This document shows, one piece after another, positions 7,010-38,869 of a stretch of DNA of 46,940 bases. This stretch comes from Clostridiales bacterium (GTDB taxonomy: Bacteria; Bacillota; Clostridia; TANB77; CAG-508), in contig SVGD01000011.1 of NCBI GenBank assembly GCA_015056485.1, positions 1 through 46,940 of the forward strand, in the 5' to 3' direction. The notes below the pieces were generated by a model. The model was not told where the DNA came from. It saw only the letters and a list, made by a program, of their open reading frames with translations, and ran no database searches. A program made the position numbers and the translations under genes. How positions within the stretch are numbered: position 1 is the first letter of the stretch; the number at the start of each line of letters is the position of its first letter.

Positions 7010-7036
7010 AAAGAGAAAGTTTATCACTTTCTCTTT
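7010..7036. terminator. Bidirectional terminator at the host-prophage junction
   Basis: Perfect 11-bp stem AAAGAGAAAGT / ACTTTCTCTTT with loop TTATC, A-rich on one side and T-rich on the other. It serves the converging XRE gene and integrase. The prophage att core should lie near here; I could not match it by eye to the right end. Confidence 0.75.
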
Positions 7037-8695: not shown

Positions 8696-8750
8696 AACTA
8701 GGTAATGTGTCATGTTTCGCTGACAGCACATTATCTAGTTTTCTTTTTTA
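8696..8750 (+). terminator. Long hairpin with T tract between repressor and integrase
   Basis: A 14-bp stem (AACTAGGTAATGTG / CACATTATCTAGTT, one G-T pair) encloses a 17-base loop containing a shorter TCA/TGA stem. A T-rich tract follows on the plus strand, overlapping the repressor stop. It reads as a terminator for rightward transcription, although no rightward gene is seen upstream. It may alternatively limit leftward readthrough into int. Confidence 0.55.
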
Positions 8751-15696: not shown

Positions 15697-15850
15697 AGAA
15701 TTAGAAAACGATAAGATTTGTAAATATTGCTTTGGGTGTAACAAATTAGAAAATGATGAGTTTAAGGGTATTAGAAATTGTAAAGATTTTGTACAAGCAA
15801 AAGATATGCAAGAATACTATATAGCCATTGGAAAGGGGAAAAGCACATAG
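15689..15850 (+). CDS. Small cysteine-rich protein, probable AGG start
   Basis: 53 residues with CKYCFGC and a further cysteine, a likely zinc knuckle. No ATG/GTG/TTG start precedes the cysteines. The only AGG in place is 15689, with GAGAGG 11 bases upstream; a clear AAGGAG at 15688-15693 instead points to a start near 15700, where no usual codon exists. The start is therefore uncertain. Its TAG overlaps the next AGG start (TAGG, 15848-15851). Confidence 0.5.
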   Translation, partial: RSRELENDKICKYCFGCNKLENDEFKGIRNCKDFVQAKDMQEYYIAIGKGKST

Positions 15851-16535
15851 GATTAGTTTAAGAAAAGGCGATTGTTTGGAATTAATAAAAGATATTCCAG
15901 ATGAAAGCATTGATTTAATAATAACTGATTGTCCGTACCATATTGTAACTGGAGGGTGTACTAACATACCTAAAAAAAGTGCTATGAAAGAAAGAGTATT
16001 TTTACAAGAGACATCTAAGACAGGTAAATTATTTAATCACAATGACATTAAATTTTCAGAATGGTTGCCAGAAGCATATAGAGTTTTAAAGGACGGAAGT
16101 CATATATACATATATATTAATGCAAGAAACTTAAAAGAATTACAACAGGAAGCGGAGAAGGTGGGGTTTGTATTTCAAAATATACTTATATGGGAAAAAG
16201 GTAATGCAACTCCTAACAGATATTATTTGAATGCTTATGAAATGATATTAATGTTAAGAAAAGGCAAAGCAAAGAACATAAATAATATGGGAACAAAAAA
16301 CATATTAAAAGTAAATAATATAAGAAATAAAAACCACCCAACCGAAAAACCAATAGAACTAAATGAAATTTTAATTGAAAATTCTAGTAAAGAAAATGAG
16401 ACAGTATTAGATATGTTTATGGGAACAGGTAGTAGTGGAATAGCTTGTTTTAATCTTAATAGAAATTATATAGGTATGGAAATTGATGAAAAATATTTTA
16501 ATATAGCAAGACAAAGAATAGAAAGAGGCGAATGA
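15849..16535 (+). CDS. Adenine/cytosine-N4 DNA methyltransferase, AGG start
   Basis: 228 residues. AGG 15849 follows AAAGGGG and gives the usual opening (M)ISLRKGDCLELI. Catalytic motif DCPYH (a DPPY variant) near residue 28; SAM motif FMGTGSSGIA near residue 190, preceded by NHPTEKP; this order marks a beta-class MTase. It could protect phage DNA from host restriction. The only other in-frame start, TTG 15828, has no ribosome binding site. It overlaps the stop of the preceding gene. Confidence 0.85.
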   Translation, partial: RISLRKGDCLELIKDIPDESIDLIITDCPYHIVTGGCTNIPKKSAMKERVFLQETSKTGKLFNHNDIKFSEWLPEAYRVLKDGSHIYIYINARNLKELQQEAEKVGFVFQNILIWEKGNATPNRYYLNAYEMILMLRKGKAKNINNMGTKNILKVNNIRNKNHPTEKPIELNEILIENSSKENETVLDMFMGTGSSGIACFNLNRNYIGMEIDEKYFNIARQRIERGE

Positions 16536-16536
16536 T

Positions 16537-16923
16537 AGGAAATTTACACTAGATATAGTACCAAGAACTAAAAAAAATTCACAACAAATTTTTGTTAGAA
16601 ATGGAAAAATATTTAATATTCCAAGTAAATTATATAGGCAATTTGAAGATGAAGCTATTAAGACGATACCTAAAAAATTTAGATTAGAAATTGATTACCC
16701 TGTAAATATAAAAGCAATATTTTATACAGAAAGTAGAAGAAGAATAGATTTAACAAATTTATTAGAGGCACTAGATGATATGTTAGTTAAAACTAAGGTA
16801 ATAAAGGACGATTGTAGAGATATTGTTGCATCTCATGATGGAAGTAGAGTGTATTGGGATAAAGAAAGACCTAGAATTGAAATTGAAATAACAAAAGTTG
16901 AGAATTATGAAAGGTGGAAATAG
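16537..16923 (+). CDS. RusA-like Holliday junction resolvase, AGG start
   Basis: 128 residues from AGG 16537 after AGAGGCGAATGAT. The body matches RusA: VPRTKKNSQ near the N-terminus and RIDLTNLLEALDDMLVKTKVIKDDC, with the conserved aspartates for metal-dependent junction cutting. An ATG start would fall inside the protein at the LDDM segment and remove half the fold. It resolves recombination intermediates before packaging. Confidence 0.85.
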   Translation, partial: RKFTLDIVPRTKKNSQQIFVRNGKIFNIPSKLYRQFEDEAIKTIPKKFRLEIDYPVNIKAIFYTESRRRIDLTNLLEALDDMLVKTKVIKDDCRDIVASHDGSRVYWDKERPRIEIEITKVENYERWK

Positions 16924-18631: not shown

Positions 18632-19018
18632 TGAATAATTTAAAAACTAAGTTATGCAATTATTTGATAGATAATAATTTAGTAGAAGAAAGCGATGTTA
18701 TAAGACATAGTTATTCTACTAATAGAATGAAAAACTTTAAAAAACAAAATTCAAGAAATAATAAAGTAGCACCTACATTAGATACTAGATGCGATTGTTT
18801 AGGTGTTGCAGTGAGGGGTGTAGATAGGGAAAATTTAAGAATTAGAAAACTTACTCCAAAAGAGTGTTGGAGATTAATGGGGTTTGATGATGAAGATTTT
18901 GAAAAGGCAAAAGCTTGTAATATGAGTCAAAACCAGCTGTATCGACAAGCACGGAAATTCTATAGTCGTAAATGTGTTGGAAAAAATATTTATTAATTTA
19001 TTAAAGGAGAATAAATAG
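18631..19018 (+). CDS. DNA (cytosine-5) methyltransferase, C-terminal polypeptide with CGGA +1 site
   Basis: ATG 18631 overlaps the previous TGA (TGATG). It carries target-recognition and motif IX parts (RIRKLTPKECWRLMGF). At GCA CGG AAA (18952) the frame must move +1: CGGA as one residue gives QA[G]NSIVVNVLEKIF, the invariant motif X of the family, ending at TAG 19016-19018. Read straight, the protein ends in an unrelated RKFYSRKC tail. The invariant glycine makes this the strongest proof that CGGN yields Gly. 128 residues after recoding. Confidence 0.85.
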
Positions 19019-19703
19019 GAATAAAATTAGTAAACAAAAAAATACAATAGATAAGAAAAAGATGGAAAATAAAGTTGAAAAACAAAATGTTTCCAATATG
19101 AAACAAGAACTAATCAAGAAAGAGTATCAAGATAATTTAACAAGTTATCTTGACTCTAAACTTGATGAAGTTATTGAAAAGTTGCAAAAGTCAAATAAAA
19201 ATTTATCTACTATTGAATTACGTTCTTTATTAGCACAAAAAAATACAATAGGTGTTTCACCTAAATATAATAATACTGAGTTAGCTATATTATTTGATTA
19301 TTATCAATTGTTTATAGAAAATATAAATAAGGTAAAACAATTTTTACCTACAAAAAAGAATTTCTGTAGTTTTATAGGTGTTAGTAGTAAAACTTATGAC
19401 AATTGGAGACAAGCAGAAGATATAGAAAGACAGGAAATAATGCAAAAAATAGATGACTATATAACTGACATATTACTTACATCTGCACAAGATGGAGAAG
19501 TAAAAGAAATAAGTACAATATATAGAACTAAAGCAGAACACGGAATGGTGGAAGCATCTAACCCAATAATAATAGAACACAAATCACAAGCAGATATAAA
19601 TAGCATAATGAAACAAATTGAGGCTGTAAATCAGGGAAAAAGTTTAAGAACAATTGAATTAAAGCAACAAGATGATGGAAGTTATGCAGAGGAGGAGAAC
19701 TAA
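19017..19703 (+). CDS. Terminase small subunit-like DNA-binding protein, AGG start
   Basis: 228 residues from AGG 19017, overlapping the methyltransferase TAG and preceded by AAAGGAG at 7 bases. An HTH (NFCSFIGVSSKTYDNWR) and a C-terminal part (IYRTKAEHGMVEA) resemble phage small terminases that bind pac/cos. It is far from the large subunit (26506); it may belong to another DNA-binding role. Confidence 0.65.
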   Translation, partial: RNKISKQKNTIDKKKMENKVEKQNVSNMKQELIKKEYQDNLTSYLDSKLDEVIEKLQKSNKNLSTIELRSLLAQKNTIGVSPKYNNTELAILFDYYQLFIENINKVKQFLPTKKNFCSFIGVSSKTYDNWRQAEDIERQEIMQKIDDYITDILLTSAQDGEVKEISTIYRTKAEHGMVEASNPIIIEHKSQADINSIMKQIEAVNQGKSLRTIELKQQDDGSYAEEEN

Positions 19704-24769: not shown

Positions 24770-25288
24770 AGGAGTAAAGTGATACTAGATGTAGATACTG
24801 GTGAGTTTAGTGAGATAAAGGCAGGAGATAGGATCGTAAGAAAAAGTTCGATAGATGCCTTTAAAAATAAGAGTCAAGATGTGGGATTTGAAGAATGGGA
24901 AATGAAACATTTCTATAAAGGGAATATAGATGAGATACGAAGTACGATGAAAATGTTAGATGTTTATGAAAAAGCTTTTCTATATTCGATAGCAACATAT
25001 ATAGGCTATGAAGATTGTTGTTTAAAGTATGATAACGGAAATGAAATAAAAGCTGATGCCTTAATTGATATATCTGGAATAAGTAAAGGAAAGTTATATT
25101 CGGTTTTAGCATCACTAGCTAAGAAAGATATTATTTATAGGGGTAAGAATAGCAAATCGGCACAAATATTTGTAAATCCGTGGTTATTCTGTAAAGGACC
25201 TAGAATCAATAAAGTTCTAAAAACTATGTTTAGGAACTACAAGATTCAAATCAAAAATGGAGTTATGTGGCAAGATTTAAAAGAGTAG
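24770..25288 (+). CDS. Replication-initiator-like winged-helix protein (RepL/DnaD-like), AGG start
   Basis: 172 residues from AGG 24770, 10 bases after GGAGG; the in-frame ATG at 24743 lies upstream of that site and within an operator. The N-terminus (SKVILDVDTGEFSE) and the end (VNPWLFCKGPRINKVLKTMF) match proteins of the RepL/phage HTH type that bind an origin. A winged helix lies at about residues 85-125 (ISGISKGKLYSVLASLAKKDII). It faces the origin-like region. Confidence 0.65.
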   Translation, partial: RSKVILDVDTGEFSEIKAGDRIVRKSSIDAFKNKSQDVGFEEWEMKHFYKGNIDEIRSTMKMLDVYEKAFLYSIATYIGYEDCCLKYDNGNEIKADALIDISGISKGKLYSVLASLAKKDIIYRGKNSKSAQIFVNPWLFCKGPRINKVLKTMFRNYKIQIKNGVMWQDLKE

Positions 25289-25760: not shown

Positions 25761-25835
25761 CGCGAGATGGAGCAGTGGCAGCTTATTGGTCTCCTAAGCC
25801 AAAGGTCGAAGGTTCGATTCCTTCTCTCGCTACCA
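25761..25835 (+). tRNA. Initiator tRNA with CCU anticodon (reads AGG start codons)
   Basis: Full cloverleaf with encoded CCA. Acceptor CGCGAGA / TCTCGCT has an unpaired C1 x U72, the hallmark of bacterial initiator tRNAs. The D stem GAGC/GCTT has A11-U24, an initiator feature. The anticodon stem TTGGT/GCCAA keeps G29-C41 and G30-C40; the third pair is U31-G39. The loop is CTCCTAA, one base from the E. coli initiator loop CTCATAA, so the anticodon is CCU. The variable loop AGGTC equals that of E. coli tRNA-fMet. The T arm is GAAGG-TTCGATT-CCTTC. MetRS normally reads the anticodon, so the amino acid carried is open (Met, Arg or other). Confidence 0.93.
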
Positions 25836-26152: not shown

Positions 26153-26226
26153 TCGAGAATGGTGAAAAGGTATCACAAGAGATTTTGATTCTCTTGTTTC
26201 TAGTTCGAGTCTAGATTCTCGATCCA
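26153..26226 (+). tRNA. tRNA-Gln (UUG anticodon)
   Basis: Acceptor TCGAGAA/TTCTCGA with U1-A72 (a Gln identity feature), D arm GTGA/TCAC, anticodon arm AGAGA-TTTTGAT-TCTCT with anticodon TTG, T arm TCTAG-TTCGAGT-CTAGA, discriminator T, encoded CCA. Complete and canonical. It reads CAA, frequent in these genes. Confidence 0.88.
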
Positions 26227-26237: not shown

Positions 26238-26507
26238 ATGATTACATTAGAAGATTATATTAAGTTAATATTAACCAAAAGGGGAATGACACAAGCCGAC
26301 TTATTAAAGTTAATGCAAGAGAAAAAACTTGGTAAGGTAGACAAGTGTCATTTAAATAATTTTATAAAAGGAACAGGTCCTAGAAGTTTTTTATGGGCTA
26401 AAAGAATTGAAATTGCTTTAGATTTAGAAAAAGATAGTATAGTTAAAATGATTGGAAAACCAACAGATTATGAAATTGTAAAGATGGAAGATTTAGAGGT
26501 AGAATAG
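26238..26507 (+). CDS. Small XRE-like helix-turn-helix protein
   Basis: 89 residues, ATG after AAAGGAGAAAAT, 11 bases after the tRNA-Gln. HTH around TQADLLKLMQEKKLGKVDKC. Probably a late-gene regulator or a terminase-associated DNA-binding protein, since its TAG overlaps the AGG start of the large terminase. Confidence 0.6.
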   Translation: MITLEDYIKLILTKRGMTQADLLKLMQEKKLGKVDKCHLNNFIKGTGPRSFLWAKRIEIALDLEKDSIVKMIGKPTDYEIVKMEDLEVE

Positions 26508-28288
26508 GCAAGATTATAAAAAGGTTATAGATGAAATTATAAAAATATTACATAAAAAGAAAAAGATAGATGAATATACAAGACTAGAAATGTGTAATAA
26601 TCTATACTTAATGCTATTACAACATTTTGATAATACATCTAAGCTATCTAAAGAAGAAAAGCAAGAAAGAGAATTAGAAGCCTGTAGATATTCTATAAAG
26701 TTTTTAATTCCAGAAATAGAAAAAAGAATATATGAATGTAATGAAGAATTTATGCCTAAATACTATGAGTTATGGGAGAAAGCTTATGCTTTTGCTGGAA
26801 GAAGGTCATTAGAACATTTTATTGATTATATTGAGTTAGATTTACCAGCACAATCCAAAGTATTAGCAAATAGAAGAAATGTATTAAAACCATTTATATT
26901 TTATTTGAATAAAAGTGCCTTTGATTCTAAATTACAATATATAGAAGCATCATTTCCACCACGGATATGGTAAAAGCTATACATTAAATAATTTTAGTGC
27001 TTGGTTATTTGGGTTAGATATAACAAATAGTATTTTGAGATGGTCATATTCACAAGAATTAGTGCTTGGTTTCAGTAGAGCAATACAAGCCATAATTAAG
27101 AGTCAAAGATTTAGAGATGTGTTCCCACAATTTAGAGTTTATGGAGATAAACCATTTGAAAAAGAAAAAGAGAGTGATTGGATTTTAAAAAATAGTGGTT
27201 CTCAAAAATCTCATATTGCAAGAACAAGAGATGGTGCAAGTACTGGTGAAAGAGCTAATAAAGCATTAATATTCGATGATATGACTAAAGGTGCAGAAGA
27301 AGCAACCAATAGTGAACAACATAGAAAAATATATGAGAGTTGGAGTACAGAATGGTTTAATAGAAGAACTGACCCAAGTGTTACATATATTTTTGTTGGT
27401 ACAATGTGGTCTCCAGAAGATATTTTAAATAGGACAATGAACGACATAGAATCAACCCACGAAATGAGACCATCAAAAATAAAAGGTTTTGAAAAATATG
27501 TAGTTGAGGCCGTAGATGGTTATGCAGCATTTATAAGAGTACCATTACTAGATGAGCAAGATGTTAGTACATGTCCTGCTGTAATGACCACAGAAGAAGC
27601 ATTAAGACTAAGAGATACAACTGATCCATTTTTGTTTAGTTGTGTATATCAACAAGAACCTATTGCACCAACAGGGCTTGAATTTGCTGATGATTTATTA
27701 GAACATTATGAAACACTTCCTTTAAATGAAAAAGGAGAAGAACTTTGTTCTAATTATGCCTTAGCAGTTTTGGACCCAGCAAGAAGAGGAAAAGATAATG
27801 TGTCAATGCCTATTTTTAGAACAGATGGAACAAAATACTATATGATAGATTGTATTTTTAAGCAAAAGGCTATGACAGAATTATATGATTTAATAGTTGA
27901 TAAAATAATAGAACACAATATTACAACATTAGTTGTTGAAAATAATATTGATACATCTTTAAAAACATTATTAGAAGAAAAATTACACAAGAAAGGTTAT
28001 TTCTTATGTGAGATAGTAGAAAAATATAATACTGTAAAAAAAGAGCAAAGAATTAAAGACACAAGAGGACTAATAAAGAAATTTATGGTATTTAAAGATA
28101 AAAAAACATATAAACCGAATACCGATTATGGTAGGTTTATGAAAAATTTTACAACATATAGTTTCGATTATGCGAATAAACATGATGATGCACCAGATAG
28201 TGTCGCTATGTTTACAACCGAGATTATATTAGGAAGGGGTAAACCAAGTAGACCAAAACCAATAAATAGAGGTTTACTGGGAATTTAA
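26506..28288 (+). CDS. terL: Terminase large subunit, AGG start and CGGA +1 site in Walker A
   Basis: AGG 26506 (TAGG overlap with the previous stop). The first frame stops in the middle of the P-loop: TTT CCA CCA CGG ATA TGG TAA. Reading CGGA (26962-26965) as one residue gives FPP[G/R]YGKSYT, the Walker A of phage terminases, and the frame runs on to 28288 (593 residues). LIFDDM gives the ATPase acidic motif, and the nuclease domain starts with AVLDPARRGKDN and ends with HDDAPDSVAMF. It powers DNA packaging. Without both recoding events no functional terminase is made. Confidence 0.88.
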
Positions 28289-28292: not shown

Positions 28293-28562
28293 AGGTCAAA
28301 TATTTGTTGGAAATGTGAAAATTGGGAAGATTGCTTTTTTTGTAGATATAATAATTTGAGACAAGATTATATGACTAAGATACATCGAGAAAAGGACACT
28401 TGGGGAAAATTGGTGATATATGTCGAAAAATGTCAAAAATTCAAACTTGAAAATCAGCAAATTCCAAAATATTTACAAGAAAGATTACATAAAATTGATA
28501 AAGTGGAAAATATAAGAATACGTGATATAATATCAAGAGCAGAGTACTATGATTTATCATAG
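28293..28562 (+). CDS. Small zinc-finger-like protein, AGG start
   Basis: 89 residues from AGG 28293, giving (M)SNICWKCENWEDCFFCRY with CxxC and CxxC pairs. The first ATG (28368) and other candidate starts lie after the cysteines. Ribosome binding site weak (GGGAATTT). Lies between terminase and portal; function unknown. Confidence 0.6.
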   Translation, partial: RSNICWKCENWEDCFFCRYNNLRQDYMTKIHREKDTWGKLVIYVEKCQKFKLENQQIPKYLQERLHKIDKVENIRIRDIISRAEYYDLS

Positions 28563-28692: not shown

Positions 28693-30336
28693 AGGTCAGA
28701 AGAAAAATCAAATGTAGAAAACACACAAACAGCCGAAAGACCAACAGAAAGTCCACCAGCTGTTATTCCAGTGCAAGATTTTCAAAGGGTATTTTTTGGA
28801 AGAAGAATTATAACTCATTCAATAAAAAAAGAAGAGTTGACTTCTAAAAAGATATTAGAGATTTTGCCACAAGTGTTGAGAGAACATGAAAAAAATTCAA
28901 AGGAAATTGATTATCTATATAACTATTATAAAGGGAAACAACCTATTCTGAAAAAAACAAAAAATGTTAGACCAGAAATAAATAATAAAGTGTTAGAGAA
29001 TCATGCCTTTGAAATTGTTGAATTTAAAAAAGGTTATGTATATGGTGAACCTATACAATATGTTCAAAAAGGGGAAAAAGAAAACGAAAAAATCACTCCA
29101 GAAATATCAATAATTAATAAGTTTATGGAAAGTGAAGATAAAGCTAGTAGAGATAAAGAAATCGCAGAATGGCAATATATTTGTGGAACGGCTTATAGAT
29201 GGGTTGATATTGATAAGGAAGATGAGTCAGATGATGCACCTTTTGAAATTAGGACACCAGATCCAAGAAGGACTTTTGTTGTATACAATAGTGGTATAAA
29301 AGGTGAGCAATTATTTAGTGGTTATTATAGTTATTTTAGTGAACAAGTTCAAATTGAAAATGGAGAATCTAAAATAAATAAATATAGAATAATAACAATT
29401 TATACCGAAGATTGTATGTATGAAATAAAAGAATCTTCTGGAATGTTAGAATTATTGAACTTTGAAATAGAATTAAATGAAAACTCTAAGCAATCAGTTG
29501 AAGCCTATCCATTAGTGGTTAAAGGTCATAGAATAATAGAATACCCTTTAAATCAAGCAAGAATAGGTCTAATTGAATTAGTAATGACAGGTTTAAATGC
29601 CTTAAATAGAATAAAATCAGATGATTTAGATGGTATTGACCAATTCATACAAAGTTTACTTGTTTTTATAAATCAAGAAATAGAACCAGAAAAATTTAGA
29701 GCATTAGTAGCATTAGGTGCTGTAGAGGTAACATCGAATGACCCTCAAAAACCAGCAGATGTAAAATTATTGACATCACAATTATTACATAGCGAAACAA
29801 AAATTGTAACAGATGATTTATACAATAATGTATTAACTATATGTGGTGTTCCAAGATTAAATCATAAAGCATCTGGTGGAGATACAGGACAAGCAAGATT
29901 ACTTGGAGAAGGCTGGACTATGGCTGATGAAAGAGCAAAGCAAGATGAGCTTTCATTTAAAAAATCTGAAAGGCAGTTTTTGAAACTAATTTTAAGAATA
30001 TGTGAATATAAAGCTGTTGTTAAAGAATTAAAATTATCAGATATAGATATAAAATTTACTAGAAACAAATCAGATAATTTACTTGTTAAAACTCAGGGAT
30101 TAATGAATATGAAACAAGCACAAGTGCCACCAGATGTAGCATTTGCAATTTGTGGGTTATTCTCTGATCCAAATGATGTTTTTAATAAGGGTAAAAAATA
30201 TTTTGGTGATAATTTTTGGAGTTCAGAAATTGAAAACTTTACTACTCCAACAAGTAAAGATGACAATGAAAAGAACGAAAAAAAGGAAAATCAAAGTATA
30301 AATAAAAATAATCTTGCTAGTGGGGATAATAACTAG
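28693..30336 (+). CDS. Portal protein (SPP1 gp6-like), AGG start
   Basis: 547 residues; AGG 28693 stands 6 bases after GGAGG. The body fits SPP1-type portals: KGKQPI then FKKGYVYGEPIQY, DPRRTFVVY, LIELVMTGLNALNRIKSDDLDGIDQF and the stem/crown helices. The portal forms the dodecameric DNA gate of the capsid. The acidic/lysine-rich tail is usual. It precedes scaffold and capsid in the standard order. Confidence 0.88.
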   Translation, partial: RSEEKSNVENTQTAERPTESPPAVIPVQDFQRVFFGRRIITHSIKKEELTSKKILEILPQVLREHEKNSKEIDYLYNYYKGKQPILKKTKNVRPEINNKVLENHAFEIVEFKKGYVYGEPIQYVQKGEKENEKITPEISIINKFMESEDKASRDKEIAEWQYICGTAYRWVDIDKEDESDDAPFEIRTPDPRRTFVVYNSGIKGEQLFSGYYSYFSEQVQIENGESKINKYRIITIYTEDCMYEIKESSGMLELLNFEIELNENSKQSVEAYPLVVKGHRIIEYPLNQARIGLIELVMTGLNALNRIKSDDLDGIDQFIQSLLVFINQEIEPEKFRALVALGAVEVTSNDPQKPADVKLLTSQLLHSETKIVTDDLYNNVLTICGVPRLNHKASGGDTGQARLLGEGWTMADERAKQDELSFKKSERQFLKLILRICEYKAVVKELKLSDIDIKFTRNKSDNLLVKTQGLMNMKQAQVPPDVAFAICGLFSDPNDVFNKGKKYFGDNFWSSEIENFTTPTSKDDNEKNEKKENQSINKNNLASGDNN

Positions 30337-30394: not shown

Positions 30395-31018
30395 AGGAAC
30401 GAAGAAGAATTAAATCAAATCTTGTCAAATGAAGAATTAGATGCAACAGGAAAAGCAGAGGCTATAAAAACTTTAGTTGGAAAAAGTTTTGTACCTACAA
30501 CAAAATATAACAATGAAAAGCAAAACACAAAAGCACAATTAGATGCTTATAATGCTTTAAAAGCTGAGTACGATTCATTTAAAGAAAGTAAAATGACAGA
30601 TGAAGAAAAACAGGCTAAACAAGCTAAACAATTGCAAGAACAATATCAAAAACAAAACTTAACAATAAGTAGAATGTATGCTGAGAATGTTTTTGCAAAA
30701 GCTGGGTTTAAAGAAGATGATTATAGTGGAATATTAGAATCAATAATTCAAGAGGACCCAGAAAAAACAAAGACTTTAGCTGAAACAATATGTAATACTA
30801 TGCAAAAGCAAAAAAAAGATATTGAAAAAGCTATAACAGACAAAATAATTAAAGGTACTAAAACACCTCCAGCTGGAAATGATAAAGGTTCAGAACCAGA
30901 AGGAGATTTAGAAAAGTATAAAAAGTTATATGCCGAAGCCCAAAAGAAAAATGATTTTGGTAAGATGGCATATTACACAAGATTAGTGCAAGAAGCACAA
31001 AATAAAAATGAAGAATAA
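30395..31018 (+). CDS. Scaffold protein (gp14/DUF4355-like), AGG start
   Basis: 207 residues; AAAGGAG, 7 bases, AGG 30395 gives (M)NEEELNQILSNEEL. Highly charged coiled coil in the centre and a disordered C-terminus, as in scaffolds that guide capsid assembly and are then removed. Directly before the capsid gene. Confidence 0.75.
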   Translation, partial: RNEEELNQILSNEELDATGKAEAIKTLVGKSFVPTTKYNNEKQNTKAQLDAYNALKAEYDSFKESKMTDEEKQAKQAKQLQEQYQKQNLTISRMYAENVFAKAGFKEDDYSGILESIIQEDPEKTKTLAETICNTMQKQKKDIEKAITDKIIKGTKTPPAGNDKGSEPEGDLEKYKKLYAEAQKKNDFGKMAYYTRLVQEAQNKNEE

Positions 31019-31032: not shown

Positions 31033-32067
31033 AGGGCAGAAACAAACGGAACAGTACAAAGTTTTGGAGTACTAAATTATGCAGGTTTATTATTTAACAA
31101 AGGAAATACAAGAACACCATTTTTAAGTATGATAGGTGGAAAAACTAAATATACAAATTCAGTAGAATTTATATTAGGACAAGAATATGCAAGTGAAGAT
31201 GGAGATATACCAAATATATCAGAAACAGATTCATTAAATGCACCAAATCCATCATATATCACAAGAAGTCAAACAACTAACGTAACTCAAATATTCCAAG
31301 ATGCAGTGGCTATAAGCTATGCAAAAATGTCTAATATGGGTACATTAGCAGGTGCAAACTTAGAAGGTTTAGAAGCTAACCCACAAAATGAGTTAGATTT
31401 CCAAGTAGGAAATAAAATGAAAAAATTAGCGAGAGCTATAGAAAAAACATTTATTCAAGGAACACACAACAAAGCTACAAAAGATAGTGAAGTTAATAAA
31501 ACAAGAGGTATTAATCAAGCTATAGTAACAAATGTTGTAGAAGCTAATGGAAAACCAATTGATATATGGTTAATTAATGACTTAGTTCAAAAAATAGATA
31601 AAGCTAATGGTGATATTTCTAACCTAACATTATGGGTTGATAATACAACATTAAATCAAATAAACGGAAATGCTATTGAAATGGGTGTTGAAGTTGGAGA
31701 ATTTAAATCAAATGAATATGGAATACAAATAAGAGATTTATATTTACCAACAGCTACTGTACATATAGCACAGGGGCAATTCATACCAGAAGGTACAGCT
31801 TTCTTATTAAACTTTGATGCTATAAGCCCAGTTGAACAACCAGTTCCAGGCAAAGGTAACTTCTTCTTAGAACCACTTGCTAAAACAGGTGCAGGAGAAA
31901 AATACCAATTGTTCGGACAAATAGGTTTAGACTATGGAAATGAAGCATTACACGGAAAAATAACTGGATTATCTACTTCATTTACAAAACCTGTTGGAAG
32001 AAAAGTTGTAGCTGTTTCAGAAGCATCAGCAGCAAGTGTTGATGGTGACGAAACACCAACTGTCTAG
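31033..32067 (+). CDS. Major capsid protein, AGG start
   Basis: 344 residues; GGAG, 9 bases, AGG 31033 gives (M)AETNGTVQSFGVLNYAGLLF, so the next ATG (31129) would delete the N-arm. Sequence of the phage capsid type with SFK/SU10-like core (TRSQTTNVTQIFQDAV, KKLARAIEKTFIQG, NLTLWVDNTTLNQI). The position after the scaffold supports the call. Confidence 0.85.
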   Translation, partial: RAETNGTVQSFGVLNYAGLLFNKGNTRTPFLSMIGGKTKYTNSVEFILGQEYASEDGDIPNISETDSLNAPNPSYITRSQTTNVTQIFQDAVAISYAKMSNMGTLAGANLEGLEANPQNELDFQVGNKMKKLARAIEKTFIQGTHNKATKDSEVNKTRGINQAIVTNVVEANGKPIDIWLINDLVQKIDKANGDISNLTLWVDNTTLNQINGNAIEMGVEVGEFKSNEYGIQIRDLYLPTATVHIAQGQFIPEGTAFLLNFDAISPVEQPVPGKGNFFLEPLAKTGAGEKYQLFGQIGLDYGNEALHGKITGLSTSFTKPVGRKVVAVSEASAASVDGDETPTV

Positions 32068-32236: not shown

Positions 32237-32578
32237 AGGTCTATATCAGAAAGCGAACAATTAATTGAAATGAGGATAGAAATATTAGGCAATAAAGATG
32301 ATACAAGCAAAGACGATATTTTTAAAATAAAGTTAAAAAGAGCTAAACAAAGATACCTTAGGCTAGTATATCCTTTTGATAAAGATATAACAGAATTGCC
32401 TAATGATAATGCTAGAGAATGGCAAACACAATGTGCAATTGAATTGTACAATATGCAGGGTGATGAGAATGTTATACAATATTCAGAAAATGGACTAAGT
32501 GAAACGAGAGCAAAAGCAGGACTTTCACAAGACTTGTTAAATGAATTGCCACCAGCTAAGGCAGGTGTTCCAATATAG
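32237..32578 (+). CDS. Head-tail connector (gp6-like), AGG start
   Basis: 113 residues; GGAGG, 9 bases, AGG 32237 gives (M)SISESEQLIEMRIEIL. Helical sequence with KRAKQRYLRLVYPF and WQTQCAIELYN fits the Phage_connect_1/gp6 family that joins portal to tail. TAG overlaps the next AGG start. Confidence 0.75.
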   Translation, partial: RSISESEQLIEMRIEILGNKDDTSKDDIFKIKLKRAKQRYLRLVYPFDKDITELPNDNAREWQTQCAIELYNMQGDENVIQYSENGLSETRAKAGLSQDLLNELPPAKAGVPI

Positions 32579-32930
32579 GTTAAAAAAATGGAATAAAAGA
32601 ATTTGGATCGCAAAACAAATACCGAATGAGGTAGATGATTATGGAAGAGCAAAATATGAAAAACCAGAATGTTTTGAAATGAATGTTCAACCAATTAGTT
32701 CTTCAAATGATATGCAAGAGTTTGGAGAAAATGCGAAACAAATACAAAGAGCAGTAATAGAATATGATAAATATTTTGATAAATTTAGTCAGTATGATTT
32801 AGCATATTTAGATGGTGCTACTCCAAATGGTGAAACTATAAATGGTTCAAATGCTAATTATAGATTATTACCACCAAGAAATCAAAACAAAGTTATTTTA
32901 TTATATTTTGAGAGATTAACAGCTAAGTAG
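32577..32930 (+). CDS. Head closure/head-tail joining protein, AGG start
   Basis: 117 residues from AGG 32577, inside the TAGG of the preceding stop. The opening (M)LKKWNKRIWIAKQ is appropriate for a head-closure protein of the gp16 type; beta-rich body. An upstream TTG-like frame would overlap the connector by 36 bases without a ribosome binding site. Confidence 0.65.
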   Translation, partial: RLKKWNKRIWIAKQIPNEVDDYGRAKYEKPECFEMNVQPISSSNDMQEFGENAKQIQRAVIEYDKYFDKFSQYDLAYLDGATPNGETINGSNANYRLLPPRNQNKVILLYFERLTAK

Positions 32931-32938: not shown

Positions 32939-33424
32939 ATGATTGATATAAATGGAAAATTTATAATGAAATTATCATTAGATAGTATTTCAGAATATAT
33001 AGATTATTTGACCAAGTATGGAACACAAAGATTGCCAGAAATTGCAGAAAACATTGTAACTAGAGTTTCAGAAGAAGGGCTTAAAGATAATTATAAATCA
33101 ACAGTAGTTATACCAACTAAAAATTCAGGTGGAATAATTACTGGTGGAATAGAAACGAAAGCCGAGAAAGATACATACTTAGAATTTGGAACAGGATTTG
33201 TTGGTAGCGAAAACCCACATGTAGATACAATGTTAAGTCAGGCAGGGTGGAAATATGATGTTAATAAACATGGAAAAAAAGGTTGGTTATACCCAAAAGG
33301 CGATGGCACTTTTGGGTGGACCAAAGGTCATATTGCAGAGAAAAAATTTTATAATGCTATGAATAGAATGCAAGATTCTTTTCAAGAGATAGCACGAGAA
33401 GAATTTAAAAGAGGAGGTAAGTAG
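32939..33424 (+). CDS. HK97 gp10-like tail-component protein (ATG start)
   Basis: 161 residues, ATG after AAGTAGGTGATTTT. YLEFGTGFVGSENPH, then GWLYPKGDGTFGWTKGHIAEKKFYNAMNRM matches the gp10-like family (neck/tail completion). Keeps ATG among AGG neighbours; its TAG overlaps the next AGG. Confidence 0.8.
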   Translation: MIDINGKFIMKLSLDSISEYIDYLTKYGTQRLPEIAENIVTRVSEEGLKDNYKSTVVIPTKNSGGIITGGIETKAEKDTYLEFGTGFVGSENPHVDTMLSQAGWKYDVNKHGKKGWLYPKGDGTFGWTKGHIAEKKFYNAMNRMQDSFQEIAREEFKRGGK

Positions 33425-33836
33425 GGCATTATTAGATATATATGAAGAAATATTTGAATATTCAAAACAGTACATAAAAAACAGTTCAAATAATAACCCT
33501 TATGTTTTAAAAGATACTCCAGAACAAACTAATCTTTTTCCGTTAGTAATTATAAAACAAGTAGACGATCCATTAGTAGATGAAAATTTAGATAAAACAG
33601 ACCAAAAATTCAATGTGATTTTTGAAATAGAAATATATTCTAAAGATAAAGAGCTAAAAGCAAAACAAGAAATAACCAAAGAATTATCAAAATTAGTAAA
33701 TGATATTTTTGATGAACATTATGGTTTTTCTAGAAAGTCTAATATTCCTATACCTAATATTGATTTAGATGTAGATAGAAGATATATGAAATATCAGGCT
33801 AAAATAGATGAAAATAAAAGAATTTATAGGAGGTAA
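33423..33836 (+). CDS. Tail terminator/completion protein, AGG start
   Basis: 137 residues from AGG 33423 (TAGG overlap; GGAGG at 9 bases). (M)ALLDIYEEIFEYSKQYI and the beta segment FNVIFEIEIYSK match minor tail/terminator proteins. The first ATG lies at codon 65, leaving half a protein. Confidence 0.7.
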   Translation, partial: RALLDIYEEIFEYSKQYIKNSSNNNPYVLKDTPEQTNLFPLVIIKQVDDPLVDENLDKTDQKFNVIFEIEIYSKDKELKAKQEITKELSKLVNDIFDEHYGFSRKSNIPIPNIDLDVDRRYMKYQAKIDENKRIYRR

Positions 33837-33842: not shown

Positions 33843-34271
33843 AGGGCAGATTCAGTAGTAGCTATTAACGACCAGGGAACATTACTATATGTGAAAGGTG
33901 CATCAAAATTTGAAAAATTAATAAGTATCAAATCAGTTCCAGCAAGTGGGGCAGAAGGTGGAACAATTGAAGTAACAGAATTAGACAGCCCAGTAAAACA
34001 ATATATAGATGATAGAAAAGATACACCAAGCCAAGATTACACATATAATAGAACGGCTGAAAAATTTGATAAAGTAAAAAATATTTGTGATGGAAAACCA
34101 CACGAGTTCTTAACTGTGTTTAGTGATGGTACAGGAACATATTGTAAAGGTACAGCACAAACTTGGAAAAATGAATTTAGTGCAGGTTCTGCACAAGAAG
34201 CTACATTACATATTGTAGCAACTGAAATAGCTGATAAAACAGCTGAAGAAGTAACAGCTTTATTAGCTTAG
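33843..34271 (+). CDS. Major tail tube protein, AGG start
   Basis: 142 residues; GGAGG, 9 bases, AGG 33843 gives (M)ADSVVAINDQGTLLYVK. Beta-rich; the middle (TEKFDKVKNICDGKPHEFL pattern) and GTGTYCKGTAQTWKNEF agree with siphophage tail tubes of about 140-150 residues. Precedes the chaperone pair and tape measure. Confidence 0.7.
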   Translation, partial: RADSVVAINDQGTLLYVKGASKFEKLISIKSVPASGAEGGTIEVTELDSPVKQYIDDRKDTPSQDYTYNRTAEKFDKVKNICDGKPHEFLTVFSDGTGTYCKGTAQTWKNEFSAGSAQEATLHIVATEIADKTAEEVTALLA

Positions 34272-34297: not shown

Positions 34298-34627
34298 AGG
34301 AGTAAATTAATAAAAATAGAAGTAGGAGATAAAGAATATACATTAGGCTTTCCTACTAGAAAAGATGCTAAAAGAGCAGAAGATTTAGGGTTAGACTTAG
34401 TAAATAATGGAGGAAAACTTATAACATTAAATGATAAGATTTTCTATACAGGATTACTAGCGAAGCACCCAAGTATTACAGAATATGAGGCGGAAAAAAT
34501 ATTAGAACAATATAGGGCTGAAAATGGTGATACAGATGAGGTTATAAATTTTCTAGTAGGTCAATATATGGCTTTTATGAGATCCCCAGATGGAAAGAAG
34601 AAAAAAGCGAAAATATTGGAGATGTAG
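34298..34627 (+). CDS. Tail assembly chaperone (gpG-like), AGG start
   Basis: 109 residues; AGG 34298 is 8 bases after GGAGG, giving (M)SKLIKIEVGDKEYTLGF. The ATG at 34283 lies before that site. Standard tail-chaperone sequence ahead of the tape measure. A run G AAA AAA GCG (34600-34609) near the end is a candidate -1 slip site that would fuse it to the downstream frame. Confidence 0.75.
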   Translation, partial: RSKLIKIEVGDKEYTLGFPTRKDAKRAEDLGLDLVNNGGKLITLNDKIFYTGLLAKHPSITEYEAEKILEQYRAENGDTDEVINFLVGQYMAFMRSPDGKKKKAKILEM

Positions 34628-35059: not shown

Positions 35060-38000
35060 AGGGCTGATTATCAGGTTGGAACATTAGAAAATAAAGTAGA
35101 GATAGAAATAAATGGTGCTGTAAGTTCAATAAGAAATTTAATTGGTTCTTTAAATTCTTTACAAGAAGCATTAAATGGAACAATAAGTTCTACTGCTAAT
35201 AACAAATTAAAACAAAATATTGATAGTTCAACTCAAAATATAAGAAGCTTAAAAAAAGCTTTAAATTTTGGTGGAATAGTTTATGGAATAAGAAAACTAG
35301 GAACAGCAATTGGAACAGTAGCACAGGCAAATATTGATATGATAGAAACAAACAATTTGTTTGAAGTATCAATGGGAAAAGTTGTTGATGAATATGGAAA
35401 TTTAGATGTTACAGCAAGTGAATATTATACAAAGGCAATTAATTTTCAAAATGAAATGAATGAAAAGCTTTTAACAAATAAAGCAGAGTTAAAGAAATAT
35501 CAAGCTATGTATTTTTCAATGCTTAAATCTCAGGGAATAGATAAGTCATCATCTTATTTTATGTCAGAAAATTTAACAAAAGCAGGTTATGATATAGCAT
35601 CTTTATATAATTTAGATGTAAGTGATGCTATGGCTAAAATAAAATCAGGACTTGCTGGTCAAGTAGAATCATTAAGAAAAATAGGTATAGATGTTTCAGA
35701 AAGTGCTTTGAAAAAAGTTTTAGATGAAGCTGGAATTGAAAGAAGTGTACAACAACTTTCTTATGCAGAGAAAGAAATTGCTAGATACATTTCAATAGTA
35801 GACCAAGCTAAAATGGCACAGGGAGACTTTGCAAAAACATTTGAACAACCAGCTAACCAAATAAGAGTATTTAAGAATCAGTTATTAGAATTAAAACAAA
35901 TAGCAGGTTCATTTATTACTAATGCTTTTGGTGGAATTATAGTAGCTGCCAATGGAATAATAATGGCAATAAAAGAAATTTTGAAAGCTATTGCTATATT
36001 ATTTAATTGGGATTTAGAATCAGGAGGTGCTGATTTAAGTTCATCAGTTGGAGTAGAAGATTTAACATCTGGCTTAGGTGGTGCTACTAAAAAAGCTAAA
36101 GAATTGAAAAAACAATTAATGGGCTTTGATGAAATTAATAATATTAGTAAACCAACTAATACATCAGCTGGTGGATCTGGTGGAGTTGCTACAGGAATTG
36201 ATGATAAATTATTAAAAAGTTTAAAAGAATGGGATAACAAGATGAGTAGTATTTCTAGTAAAGCAAAAGAAATACGAGATTCAATATTAGAATGGCTAGG
36301 ACTATCTGATGGTATTCCAAAAACTTTTGAAGAATGGTGGAAAAAACTAGGTGCTATTCAAAAAACTATTATTACTATTAGTGCTATAATTGCTGGAATA
36401 TTTGTTATAGGAAAAATAACTAAATTAGTTAATTGGATTACAACTTTAATCACAATATTAAAAACTGGACAGGGTGCAACTACAACTTTTGGCTATGGCT
36501 TACAAACAATAGGAAAAATTGCTGGAGGTGTAAAAACTGGTTTTTCAGTTTTGGTTGAGTGGGGTAAAAAAGCTGTAACACAATATGGTCTTTTTAGAGA
36601 GGCTGGTTTTGGTGTAATGGAATCATTACAATTAACAAACGGCTATTTAGGTGCAACAAATCAGGGATTTCTTTCGATAATTCCAACAACAGCAAGAGTA
36701 ATAGGAGGTCTAACAGGTTTAGTAGCATCAAGTGCTTTAACATATACATCTATGCAAGATTTAGAAAGTGGAACTATAACGGCAGAAGAAGGACTTTTAA
36801 AATTAGCAGGTGGACTAGCAGGGGCAGCTGCTAGTGGTGCTGTATTAGGTTCTGTAATACCACGGAGTAGGAACTGCTATTGGTGCTGTAACAGGTTTAG
36901 TTGTAGCAGGAACAACGGCACTTGTAGGTTATATAACTTGTACAGAAGAAGTTAAAGATGATTTTAATACTATTGGAGAAAGTGCAAATAATTTTATAAC
37001 AGGAATAGAAAGTGCAAATTCACATTTAAGTAGTTTTAATATTACATTATTTGCATCAGCAGAAGAACAAAGAAAATTACAAACTAACATGGACGAGATA
37101 CAATCTGCTATAACAACTATATGTAAAACGGCATCAGATGAAAGAAGAAGTTTAACAGAAACAGAAATTGAAAGATTAGATAAATACTTTGAAAAATTAA
37201 GAGAATTAAAAGATAGAGAAATTGAAATTCAAAATCAAATATCAAAAGCAATTACTCAACAAGCTAGAACTAATGCAGAGACATTTAAAGGTTCTCTTGA
37301 TGAATATAAAATTCAATCGCAAGAATGGATTAAAACAGCAGAAGAACAATCAGAAAAAACGATTGAAATTATAAAAGAAGGTACTATTGAAGAAATTGCT
37401 TTGTTAAATCAAAGATATGGCGATAGTGCAAATATGCAAAATGAGGCTTATGCAAAAGAATATGAAAAAATCATAAGTCAAAGAGATTTAAAAATTGAAC
37501 AGGCACAAGATGAAGTTGCAAAAGTAAATGAAGCTTATGCAAAAGGGTATCTAGAAAGAAGTAAAACTAACGAAGGTTTTTATAAAACATTAACTGAATA
37601 TCAAGAAAAACAAAGAAAACTAGAAGAAGGACATTTATCACAAATAGAAAAAATTAAAAATGGAGAATTATGGTATGTTACAAATACATACCAAGCTATA
37701 CAAAGTGAAAATAGCACATTTGCTTTTCATCAAAAAGAAACTTGGAAAGAAATGTATAAGAATATGTCTGATGAACAAGCTAGTGAACTTGGTATTTGGT
37801 TAGCGATGGTATCTCAAACTGAAATGTATGGTGGAGAAATAAGCGAAGAAACAAAAGAGCTTGTTGATTCATTAATGGATAGCTATGATAGTATGCCAAA
37901 AGGAACTAAAAAAGCTATGGAAAATGCTATGAAACCAATGTTAGATGAAATGGAAAAGAAAGAACCATCATTATTTAAGAAAGCAAGTAATATAGCAAAT

Positions 38001-38480
38001 GGAATATTAAATAGATTAAAGACAGCTTTCGATATACATTCTCCATCTAGAAAAACAAGAGAAATATTTAGAAATGTAATGTATGGAATGGAAGAAGGTA
38101 TAGATGAAGAAGAAAATGGTATTTTAAAAGCAACTAGCGATTTCTCTAAAAAGATACTATCAAATTTAAATATTTCAGATAAATTAAAAAATATAAATGA
38201 TGGAATAAAAATTAATACTAGAGATATGAAAATAGATACAACACAATATGTAGATTATAGTTCAATAAAAGGCAAGATAAATACTCAAATAAACACATCA
38301 ATAAATAACAACTTAATAAACGGAATAATAAATGCAATAAAACAGGGAATTGTAGAATCAGACTTTAATGTGAATATTGAAGCTAAAACTGAAGAAGGGG
38401 TAATTGTAAGAAAAGCTACAGAAGGTTTTAAAGAATATGTAATGCAAACAGGTGAATTACCATTTCCTGTTCCAGTATAG
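35060..38480 (+). CDS. Tape measure protein, AGG start and CGGA +1 site
   Basis: 1139 residues after recoding. AGG 35060 after TAGGTGAAATAA gives (M)ADYQVGTLENKVEIEI, typical of tape measures. The frame breaks at GTA ATA CCA CGG AGT (36863); CGGA as one residue gives VIP[G]VGTAIGAVTGLVVAG, a glycine-rich hydrophobic segment expected in this family. Repetitive coiled coils follow (37090-37660), then FDIHSPSRKTREIF, a common late tape-measure motif. Sets tail length. Confidence 0.88.
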
Positions 38481-38491: not shown

Positions 38492-38869
38492 AGGTATGTA
38501 AACGATATTATAAAAATAGATGGAATTGATATAAGTAAATACTTAAAAGATGAAGGTTATGAAGTTGAAGAGTATGATTTAAGTTATGATAGTGGAAGAA
38601 ATGCAAAGGGTTATATGCACTATAACCCTATTGCAACAAAAATAAAAATAATTCTACATACTAGACATCTTACACAAGAAGAATTTGTCGAATTTTATTC
38701 TGCTATAAGGACTTTAAAACAATATTCGGTAGAGTTCTACAATCCATATACGGCTGAGATACAGACAGCAAATTGTTATAGAGGCGATAGAAAAATAGTT
38801 ATGAAATGGAATAGAGTAGATAAAGGGATTTTATATAATCCAATAGATATAAGTTTAATAGAATTATAG
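38492..38869 (+). CDS. Tail protein (distal tail region), AGG start
   Basis: 125 residues; GGAGG, 7 bases, AGG 38492 gives (M)YVNDIIKIDGIDISKYL. Size and place between tape measure and the large tail protein fit the small tail proteins of DUF6711 type. The first ATG is at codon 40. Confidence 0.65.
   Translation, partial: RYVNDIIKIDGIDISKYLKDEGYEVEEYDLSYDSGRNAKGYMHYNPIATKIKIILHTRHLTQEEFVEFYSAIRTLKQYSVEFYNPYTAEIQTANCYRGDRKIVMKWNRVDKGILYNPIDISLIEL

What the first reader, a model, noticed from the sequence alone, without database searches (positions are those of the whole stretch)
25761..25835. Phage-encoded initiator tRNA with a CCU anticodon
The tRNA has the marks of a bacterial initiator (C1 x U72 mismatch, A11-U24, G29-C41 and G30-C40, loop CTNNTAA, AGGTC variable loop, encoded CCA). 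Its anticodon is CCU because the loop is CTCCTAA instead of CTCATAA. CCU pairs with AGG, which is precisely the codon found at the start position of 22 genes of the same phage. I know of no described natural initiator tRNA with this anticodon.
Basis: partly seen in the sequence, partly recalled or inferred. Interest (0 to 1): 1.

Follow-up and report, generated by a model that had tools for sequence, protein, structure and literature searches.

The report
Phage tRNA with private start codon
This prophage carries a tRNA built like a bacterial start tRNA but with an anticodon for AGG, and 22 of its genes have AGG where ATG is expected, so the phage likely begins most of its late proteins with its own private start codon.

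Summary
The tRNA at 25761-25835 has C1xU72, A11-U24, G29-C41, G30-C40, loop CTCCTAA and an encoded CCA. I hand-called AGG at the start of 22 genes; a stricter automatic caller gives 15. In 20 pooled loci of AGG-using relatives, AGG behind a Shine-Dalgarno is enriched 7.6-fold (143 of 414), against 1.2-fold in 13 ATG-using relatives. At orthologous late-gene starts AGG stands where relatives have ATG. A CCU tRNA with mismatched or weak 1-72 pair is in 19 of 19 AGG phages whose contig clearly covers the region and in 0 of 11 ATG-using records searched. Two ATG groups nested among AGG phages carry CAU initiator-like tRNAs instead. Internal AGG aligns to Arg, so this is not general recoding. Strongest evidence: tRNA base 37 covaries with the base before AGG (A37: T 108/156; U37: A 92/107; p=5e-22), while ATG starts of the same phages do not (p=0.77). 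Other phage families show the same pairing. Charging (Met inferred), formylation and initiation are untested.

The parts
25761..25835 (+). Initiator-like tRNA with CCU anticodon, encoded CCA
   Evidence: C1xU72, G2-C71, C3-G70, A11-U24, G29-C41, G30-C40, A37, A73
26153..26226 (+). Second phage tRNA, tRNA-Gln (UUG)
7036..8592 (-). Tyrosine integrase; start taken as ATG 8592 behind a weak SD (AAGG)
   Evidence: PF00589 1.3e-24; phrog_1
8748..9707 (-). CI/LexA-like repressor (S24 peptidase + HTH), ATG start with SD AAGGAG
   Evidence: PF00717 4e-26
15849..16535 (+). N4/N6 DNA methylase, AGG start
   Evidence: PF01555 (run on the ORF from 15825)
16537..16923 (+). RusA-like nuclease, AGG start
   Evidence: PF05866
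17549..18631 (+). C5 DNA methylase, AGG start; profile position 2 aligns to protein residue 2
   Evidence: PF00145 5.3e-62
19017..19703 (+). Unknown protein, AGG start
24770..25288 (+). Unknown protein, AGG start behind AGGAGG
26506..28288 (+). Terminase large subunit in two overlapping frames (26506-26973 and 26945-28288), AGG start
   Evidence: PF22530 on the second frame
28293..28562 (+). Small cysteine-rich protein, AGG start (weak SD)
28693..30336 (+). Portal protein, AGG start behind GGAGG
   Evidence: PF05133 4.5e-60
30395..31018 (+). Gene before the capsid gene (scaffold position, from gene order), AGG start
31033..32067 (+). Major capsid protein (SU10-like), AGG start
   Evidence: PF17236 1.3e-51
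32237..32578 (+). Late gene (head-tail connector position, from gene order), AGG start
32577..32930 (+). Late gene, AGG start
32939..33424 (+). Late gene with ATG start (AGG with SD in 6 of 21 AGG-phage orthologues, ATG in 11)
33423..33836 (+). Late gene, AGG start
33843..34271 (+). Major tail protein, AGG start
   Evidence: phrog_158
34298..34627 (+). Late gene, AGG start
35060..38480 (+). Tape-measure protein (by place and length) in two frames (35060-36955, 36858-38480), AGG start
38492..38869 (+). DUF6711 protein, AGG start
   Evidence: PF20458
38878..40851 (+). Tail protein, AGG start
   Evidence: phrog_6616
40866..43646 (+). Tail fibre/collar protein, AGG start behind AGGAGG
   Evidence: PF07484, PF05895
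43660..43980 (+). Small, hydrophobic-start protein, AGG start
43993..44298 (+). Small, hydrophobic-start protein, AGG start
44302..45144 (+). N-acetylmuramoyl-L-alanine amidase (endolysin), AGG start; profile position 1 aligns to residue 3
   Evidence: PF01520 4.3e-36

Best explanation
The prophage encodes a tRNA with initiator features and a CCU anticodon that most likely acts as a second initiator tRNA, predicted to start translation at AGG codons placed behind Shine-Dalgarno sequences, mainly in the late structural and lysis genes. Shown by sequence: the tRNA, the AGG starts, their substitution for ATG at orthologous positions, co-occurrence of the two across phages, and covariation of tRNA base 37 with the base just before AGG, which points to a four-base UAGG or AAGG contact. 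Inferred: the tRNA is charged with methionine (A73, G2-C71, C3-G70, no A20), formylated because 1-72 is unpaired, kept out of elongation for the same reason, and placed in the P site by IF2. Internal AGG stays arginine, presumably read by the host's own elongator tRNA-Arg(CCU). Proposed role: integrase, repressor and most early genes start with ATG, GTG or TTG and work with host tRNA alone, while most virion and lysis genes cannot start until the phage tRNA is made, giving a translational lock on late genes and independence from the host tRNA-fMet pool.
For: tRNA anatomy. SD-linked AGG 143 of 414, 7.6-fold, p=2e-83 in 20 AGG-phage loci, against 6 of 137, 1.2-fold, p=0.38 in 13 ATG-phage loci. 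Orthologous late-gene starts: AGG 190 with SD plus 9 without, of 264 in AGG phages; 1 of 83 in ATG relatives (Fisher 1e-37). Portal 24/24, capsid 18/18 and terminase 18/18 AGG in AGG phages. Co-occurrence: CCU initiator-like tRNA in 19 of 19 AGG phages of the portal tree whose contig clearly covers the region, 0 of 11 ATG records (Fisher 2e-8). The portal tree needs 4 label changes; ATG L146 is sister to AGG L177 and ATG L154/L158 to AGG L179/L180, and L146 and L158 hold CAU initiator-like tRNAs. Base 37 against base -1: p=5e-22, ATG control p=0.77. Internal AGG aligns with Arg 414/827 and Met 20/827, like AGA. Capsid AGG GCA ATT of G046 lines up with ATG GCA ATT of Dulem virus 31. AGG starts cluster downstream of the tRNA: 38 of 70 against 3 of 96 in four records.
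Against: No experiment. Three consecutive G-C pairs, a main initiator element, occur in 1 of 20 CCU tRNAs; A11-U24 in only 10 of 20. C35 lacks MetRS's A35. Two phages break the base-37 rule: L175 (U37 but T at -1 in 7 of 8) and L135 (A37 but C in 7 of 8). L204 and L240 carry such a tRNA but no SD-backed AGG start in their 8.5 and 9.2 kb, L244 none in 5.8 kb, and G038 and G040 have one each. AGG contig L185 holds 4.4 kb before its portal and no such tRNA was found there. Five AGG genes of the window lie upstream of the tRNA, and in G004, G006, G014, G031 and G046 AGG starts also lie away from it or ATG starts are as many, so a lock would not be strict. The AGG and ATG groups were sorted by the start codons themselves, so the contrasts are partly by construction; many compared phages are close kin, so gene-level p-values overstate independence.
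Confidence: 0.88

Rival explanations
1. The tRNA does initiate at AGG but is charged with arginine by ArgRS (formyl-Arg start), so late proteins begin with Arg, not Met.
For: CCU is an arginine anticodon. From memory, not from a call: initiator bodies with changed anticodons can be charged by the synthetase of the new anticodon. In PMC8576571 (passages) a tRNA-Gln body turned into an initiator started proteins with Gln, so initiation with other amino acids is possible.
Against: Nucleotide 20 is A in only 1 of 20 tRNAs (L007), by hand reading of the D-loops (the script misread L180, which is T); A20 and A/G73 are named as Arg identity elements in PMC8629427 (passages). A73 in 19 of 20, G2-C71 and C3-G70 in 20 of 20 are the Met features that paper uses for its AGG=Met tRNA, and it notes that C35 affects the least critical anticodon base for MetRS.
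Confidence: 0.15
2. The main benefit is resistance to host defences that cut or deplete tRNA-fMet; late-gene timing is a by-product.
For: VapC toxins cut initiator tRNA and phage tRNAs are proposed to evade anticodon nucleases (passages of PMC10264068). The anticodon loop differs from the host initiator's only at base 35.
Against: Not tested here. ATG sister phages carry CAU initiator-like tRNAs with loop CTCATAA. The same paper says phages generally avoided encoding tRNA-fMet where VapC-LT2 cuts the anticodon. It does not by itself explain why most early genes keep ATG.
Confidence: 0.3
3. AGG is recoded to methionine everywhere in these phages (as in UBA7642 Bacilli), and start codons merely follow.
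For: The tRNA features match the AGG=Met tRNA described in PMC8629427.
Against: Internal AGG aligns to Arg 50%, Lys 15%, Met 2.4% (827 cells), like AGA (51%, 15%, 1.3%) and unlike ATG (Met 35%). The host has a normal elongator tRNA-Arg(CCU).
Confidence: 0.02
4. AGG at starts is an artefact of purine-rich Shine-Dalgarno regions, and the tRNA is an ordinary elongator for a rare codon.
For: SD sequences contain AGG; AGG is rarer in five host genes of the window (1 of 1640 codons) than in late genes (20 of 4929, start codons left out).
Against: Not seen in ATG relatives with the same SD use (6/137, 1.2-fold), nor clearly in the nine phage loci checked whose CCU-pattern tRNA is G1.U72 (eight) or U1-A72 (L203): SD-linked AGG 0 in seven, 1 of 9 and 2 of 14 in the others. 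Does not explain ortholog substitution, CAU/ATG pairs or base-37 covariation.
Confidence: 0.02

Closest known systems
Bacterial initiator tRNA-fMet (CAU)
   Same: Unpaired 1-72, G2-C71, C3-G70, G30-C40, encoded CCA; the window tRNA is 76% identical to the host's own tRNA-fMet (58 of 76 columns)
   Different: Anticodon CCU for AGG; two instead of three G-C pairs; phage-encoded; half of the 20 CCU tRNAs have U11-A24
AGG-to-Met genetic code of UBA7642 Bacilli (Shulgina and Eddy 2021, PMC8629427; passages read)
   Same: tRNA-CCU with Met identity elements and no A20
   Different: There AGG is Met inside genes and an Arg tRNA changed charging; here internal AGG aligns with Arg. That paper's two AGG=Met phages carried no tRNA-CCU
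Engineered orthogonal initiators (UAG start, CUA anticodon; PMC8576571, passages read; PMC13232202, search listing only)
   Same: Initiator elements with another anticodon reading a non-AUG codon at the start only
   Different: Engineered, not natural; a stop codon in the paper read; here a sense codon in many genes of wild phages
Phage-encoded CAU initiator-like tRNAs (Prevotella phage Lak-B1; L146 group)
   Same: Phage carries its own initiator-like tRNA
   Different: CAU anticodon; in the L146 group ATG starts
Stop-codon recoding of phages with suppressor tRNAs (recalled, no call)
   Same: A phage tRNA changes codon use in phage genes
   Different: Acts in elongation on stop codons; here on initiation at a sense codon

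Membership tests
Bacterial initiator tRNA | No Watson-Crick pair at 1-72, or U1-A72 (98.6% mismatch in 4438 initiators, rest U1-A72: PMC5143459) | tested here: met
   Window C x U; 20 CCU tRNAs: CxU 7, CxA 6, AxA 3, U-A 3, GxA 1
Bacterial initiator tRNA | A11-U24 (4430 of 4438) | tested here: inconclusive
   Met in the window; over the 20 tRNAs A-U in 10, U-A in 10
Bacterial initiator tRNA | Three G-C pairs 29-31/39-41 | tested here: not met
   Window has two (31-39 is U.G). G30-C40 in 19 of 20, G29-C41 in 14 of 20, all three in 1 of 20 (L178)
Bacterial initiator tRNA | CAU anticodon | tested here: not met
   CCU
Bacterial initiator tRNA | Formylated, IF2-bound, active in initiation only | not testable with these tools
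   Needs biochemistry
Elongator tRNA-Arg(CCU) | Paired 1-72 | tested here: not met
   C x U in the window; host Arg-CCU is G1-C72
Elongator tRNA-Arg(CCU) | A20 | tested here: not met
   C20 in the window; A20 in 1 of 20 by hand reading
AGG-to-Met genetic code | Internal AGG at Met positions | tested here: not met
   R 414, K 121, M 20 of 827
Second-initiator (private start codon) system, defined here | tRNA base 37 complements base -1 of AGG starts | tested here: met
   11 of 12 A37 phages have T, 18 of 19 U37 phages have A as commonest -1 base (Fisher 1.6e-6)

The most novel reading that the evidence does not exclude
Several families of phages run a second, insulated translation-initiation channel: an own initiator tRNA-fMet(CCU) reads a four-base start signal, UAGG or AAGG, in virion and lysis genes, while the same AGG triplet stays arginine inside genes. 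The anticodon and many start codons have switched together between CCU/AGG and CAU/ATG more than once, and tRNA base 37 and the base before the start have switched together between A/U and U/A.
Probability: 0.78. Interest if true: 1.

Novelty: categorically new. Interest (0 to 1): 0.97.

Why it matters
Initiation with a CAU initiator is among the most conserved steps in biology. In the rows shown by ten searches of the held paper library (two searches showed 20 of 419 and 20 of 258) I saw no natural initiator tRNA with another anticodon and no gene set with a private sense start codon. If right, one codon has two meanings set by position, phages gain a translational switch for late genes, gene finders that look for ATG, GTG and TTG miss the true starts of capsid, portal and lysis genes in these phages, and nature has already built the orthogonal initiation that engineers seek. 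The base-37/-1 covariation makes extended start-codon pairing directly testable.

Tried and rejected
Ordinary elongator tRNA-Arg: rejected by 1-72, nt20 and the controls. General AGG=Met recoding: rejected by internal alignment. Shine-Dalgarno artefact: rejected by ATG relatives. Confinement to one phage or an assembly artefact: rejected by many contigs from different metagenomes and MAGs. ARAGORN missed the CCU tRNAs of L145, L173, L178 and L182; a covariance model found hits there and the anticodons were read. One search's pattern gave 83 stretches, of which two (L026, L075) held an ARAGORN CCU tRNA with C1 and A/U72; patterns with the 3' end did better. Prevalence: the pattern hits 5 of 292 genomes of the host family; three (G000, G145, G118) are CCU tRNAs, G283 gave no tRNA by ARAGORN, G091 was not scanned. 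It misses other loop types, so this is a lower bound, but the tRNA is no family-wide host gene. Pfam scans of 40 window ORFs showed no synthetase, formyltransferase or initiation factor; a last batch of ten failed and was not rerun, so several small genes stay unscanned by Pfam. Structure prediction and the homologous-protein search were not used.

Rows left out and limits: (a) The loci were put into AGG and ATG groups by their own start profile, so searches compare groups made from the same data; one search chose among ATG, GTG, TTG and AGG only, and neither thinned near-identical kin (L139/L172; L181-L184/L164). (b) Co-occurrence leaves out AGG contigs with 1.0-3.1 kb before the portal or a cut start (L138, L139, L172, L177, L184, L187, L188, L009/L152) and L185, which holds 4.4 kb and shows none; in phages with the tRNA, apart from L008 where the contig end lies between, it lies 2.9-5.2 kb before the portal. 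The 11 ATG records are those of L010, L012, L013, L015, L016, L019, L146, L149, L150, L159 and L165; several are partial, and L146, L149, L150 are near copies. L166 (25 kb, no tRNA), L189, L191, L192 (no tRNA in the locus) and short ATG contigs were not counted. ARAGORN's 'CCU' call in ATG phage L190 has a C1-G72 pair and an odd loop and was not counted. (c) One search used 31 phages; G040 (one AGG start, A37, T at -1: fits), L204, L240, L244 (no AGG start) and short contigs with such tRNAs (L221, L222, L227, L235, L239, L249) were not in it. (d) The four records of the 38/70 against 3/96 count were picked because the late operon follows the tRNA; one search shows seven more. (e) In one search the script misread nt20 of L180 as G; by eye it is T.

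Full report
What is there. The window is stretch C24:1-46940 of a 1.7 Mb genome in 40 contigs at 27.7% G+C. Bases 159-7004 look like host genes (nitroreductase, sigma factor, HTH protein); from 7036 an integrated prophage follows: tyrosine integrase, CI/LexA-like repressor, recombination and replication genes, a reverse-strand module, then a late operon from terminase to endolysin. Its right-hand junction was not mapped. Just before the late operon lies the tRNA at 25761-25835, then a tRNA-Gln at 26153. A 41.5 kb IMG/VR contig (L003) holds the same phage with an identical tRNA.

The tRNA. Read by hand it has C1xU72, G2-C71, C3-G70, A11-U24, G29-C41, G30-C40, U31.G39, loop CUCCUAA, variable loop AGGUC, A73 and an encoded CCA. 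It is 76% identical (58 of 76 columns) to the host's own tRNA-fMet, 65% to a host tRNA-Met (L299) and 60% (50 of 84) to the host's elongator tRNA-Arg(CCU). The host's fMet is CAU with C1xA72 and GGG/CCC, its Arg CCU has G1-C72 and A20.

The start codons. Hand-calling gives 22 genes with AGG in the start position, all verified as AGG; 17 of them lie in the late operon 26506-45144, where one further gene (32939) has ATG. The Pfam amidase profile begins at residue 3 and the C5 methylase profile at residue 2 of the AGG-started proteins. A strict automatic caller finds 15 AGG, 24 ATG, 2 GTG and 4 TTG starts in the window. Integrase, repressor, most early genes and the reverse-strand module are called with ATG, GTG or TTG.

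Relatives. A tape-measure search gave 17 viral loci; L003-L009 show AGG starts, L010-L019 ATG. A portal-profile search gave 33 viral loci and 24 loci in genome contigs, 22 of the 24 titled as Clostridia, Clostridiaceae, Clostridium or Lachnospiraceae MAGs. Pooled over 20 AGG loci (453 ORFs, first 50 codons each) AGG stands behind an SD 143 times of 414, 7.6-fold, p=2e-83, and ATG 78 of 514, 3.3-fold; in 13 ATG loci (254 ORFs) ATG is 106 of 403, 7.3-fold, and AGG 6 of 137, 1.2-fold, p=0.38. The groups had been sorted by start use, so it is the rank of AGG among all codons, not the contrast alone, that carries weight.

Orthologous starts. For 18 late genes compared by BLAST over 24 AGG-phage and 19 ATG-phage loci (14 genes had AGG-phage orthologues), the called start in AGG phages was AGG 190 (+9 without clear SD), ATG 53 (+2), GTG/TTG 9, none 1; in ATG phages ATG 71 (+5), GTG/TTG 6, AGG 1 (Fisher 1e-37). 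Portal 24 of 24, capsid 18 of 18 and terminase 18 of 18 are AGG in the first group; terminase in the second is ATG 3, TTG 3. The relatives' ATG often falls within three residues of the window's AGG (capsid 5 of 5; tail gene 33423 6 of 7; portal only 1 of 15, its N-terminus being of variable length). An independent case: the capsid of a different family (G046) reads AGG GCA ATT where Dulem virus 31 reads ATG GCA ATT and Geobacillus phage phiOH2 ATG CCA ATT.

Co-occurrence. ARAGORN, Rfam and a covariance model find a CCU tRNA in 19 of 19 AGG phages of the portal tree whose contig clearly covers the region, and in 0 of 11 ATG-using records (Fisher 2e-8), several of them partial. AGG contig L185 shows none in the 4.4 kb before its portal. 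With the 52% G+C phage L135 there are 20 distinct CCU tRNAs: 1-72 is CxU 7, CxA 6, AxA 3, U-A 3, GxA 1; G2-C71 and C3-G70 20 of 20; G30-C40 19; G29-C41 14; all three G-C pairs 1; A11-U24 10, U11-A24 10; A73 19; CCA 20. In a survey of 4438 bacterial initiators 98.6% are mismatched at 1-72 and the rest are U1-A72, while 99.5% of elongators are paired; A11-U24 is near universal (PMC5143459, passages). So the 1-72 rule is met by all, the 11-24 and three-G-C rules only in part.

CAU/ATG sisters. On the portal tree (40 rows) the AGG label needs 4 changes, at least 3 by well-supported branches. ATG phage L146 groups with AGG fragment L177 (100/100; its tRNA is unknown), and ATG phages L154/L158 with AGG phages L179/L180 (100/100). 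L146 and L158 carry, 2.7-3.3 kb before the portal, a CAU tRNA with A1-U72 and loop CUCAUAA; L154's 4 kb contig shows no tRNA. Anticodon and start codon thus appear to have changed together more than once; the direction is not settled.

AGG inside genes. Over alignments with ATG-phage homologues, internal AGG codons face Arg 414, Lys 121, Met 20 of 827; AGA faces Arg 51%, Met 1.3% of 6374; ATG faces Met 35% of 5167. AGG therefore keeps its arginine meaning inside genes. This separates the case from the AGG-to-Met code of UBA7642 Bacilli (PMC8629427, passages), whose tRNA-CCU nevertheless shares A73, G2-C71, C3-G70 and lack of A20; I use the same argument to infer Met charging here.

Base 37 and base -1. 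Over 31 phages with a CCU tRNA, AGG starts called by SD have T at -1 in 108 of 156 cases when tRNA base 37 is A (12 phages), and A at -1 in 92 of 107 when it is U (19 phages): p=5e-22 for T, 4e-27 for A. ATG starts of the same phages do not differ (T 74 of 169 against 119 of 282, p=0.77). By phage the commonest base fits in 11 of 12 and 18 of 19 (p=1.6e-6). L174, a U37 phage inside the window's own subclade (support 89/92), has A at -1 in 9 of 10. Exceptions are L175 (U37, T in 7 of 8) and L135 (A37, C in 7 of 8). I read this as pairing of base 37 with the base before the start codon, and as sequence evidence that this tRNA reads these codons.

Other families. Patterns for the tRNA led to phages with unrelated or only distantly related virion genes. 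In G039, G046, G047 and L198, AGG behind SD starts capsid (phrog_422, scanned in G039) and, in the first three and G034, a portal-type gene (phrog_156, scanned in G046); G042 portal (phrog_533), G041 endolysin, G031 portal (phrog_64) and major tail protein (phrog_158) likewise. In most of them ATG starts are more numerous, so AGG serves a subset. L204, L240 and L244 have the tRNA but no SD-backed AGG start in short contigs; G038 and G040 one each. Nine loci with other CCU-pattern tRNAs (eight G1.U72, one U1-A72) show no clear AGG enrichment.

Where AGG genes lie. In window, G005, G039 and G047, AGG makes 38 of 70 called starts downstream of the tRNA on its strand and 3 of 96 elsewhere (Fisher 9e-15). 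These four were picked because the late operon follows the tRNA; in G004, G006, G014, G031, G041 and G046 the layout is less clear and AGG also occurs elsewhere in all but G041.

Mechanism. Most likely the tRNA is a second initiator: Met charged, formylated, excluded from elongation by its open 1-72 pair, and used at (U/A)AGG. Because lysogeny and most early genes avoid AGG, a translational lock on late genes and independence of host tRNA-fMet both follow; I cannot rank these uses firmly. All biochemical steps are inferred.

Literature. Ten library searches listed, in the rows shown, no natural initiator with a non-CAU anticodon and no AGG start system. Read as passages: PMC8629427, PMC8576571, PMC5143459, PMC12482277, PMC10264068; PMC13232202 only in a search listing. 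Most subscription papers are not held, so other reports could exist.

Noticed in passing
window 26945-26973 and 36858-36955; L140, L143, L145, L173, L174, L175: Terminase and tape measure of the window are each split into two frames with a +1 step at CCACGGA; the two CGG codons among 4929 late-gene codons counted (second frames left out) sit at these sites. In terminase a CCN-CC(A/T)-CGG site with the frame change recurs in 7 phages, the window included; in-frame kin lack that CGG. Possibly a programmed +1 frameshift at a hungry codon CGG. L158 also changes frame there, without CGG.
   Followed up: partly
window 17549-18996: C5 DNA methylase is split into two ORFs (profile 2-219 and 244-305).
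   Followed up: no
window 34298-35050: Overlapping ORFs before the tape measure look like the usual tail-assembly chaperone frameshift, so 34721 ATG is probably no start (likeness recalled).
   Followed up: no
L137, L164, L174, L141, L171: Several CCU tRNAs seem to have an extra base between acceptor and D stem and a G7xG66 mismatch (read by eye).
   Followed up: no
L144 2926-3001; L182 4854-4927: Two AGG phages also carry a CAU tRNA with a similar body to each other, role unknown.
   Followed up: no
L325 67-140: Prevotella phage Lak-B1 encodes an initiator-like CAU tRNA in an unannotated record.
   Followed up: partly
L324 (PP511318.1): Dulem virus 31 is filed under Microviridae although its 35.8 kb record codes a capsid protein 54% identical to that of a tailed-phage-type contig; the taxonomy looks wrong.
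   Followed up: no
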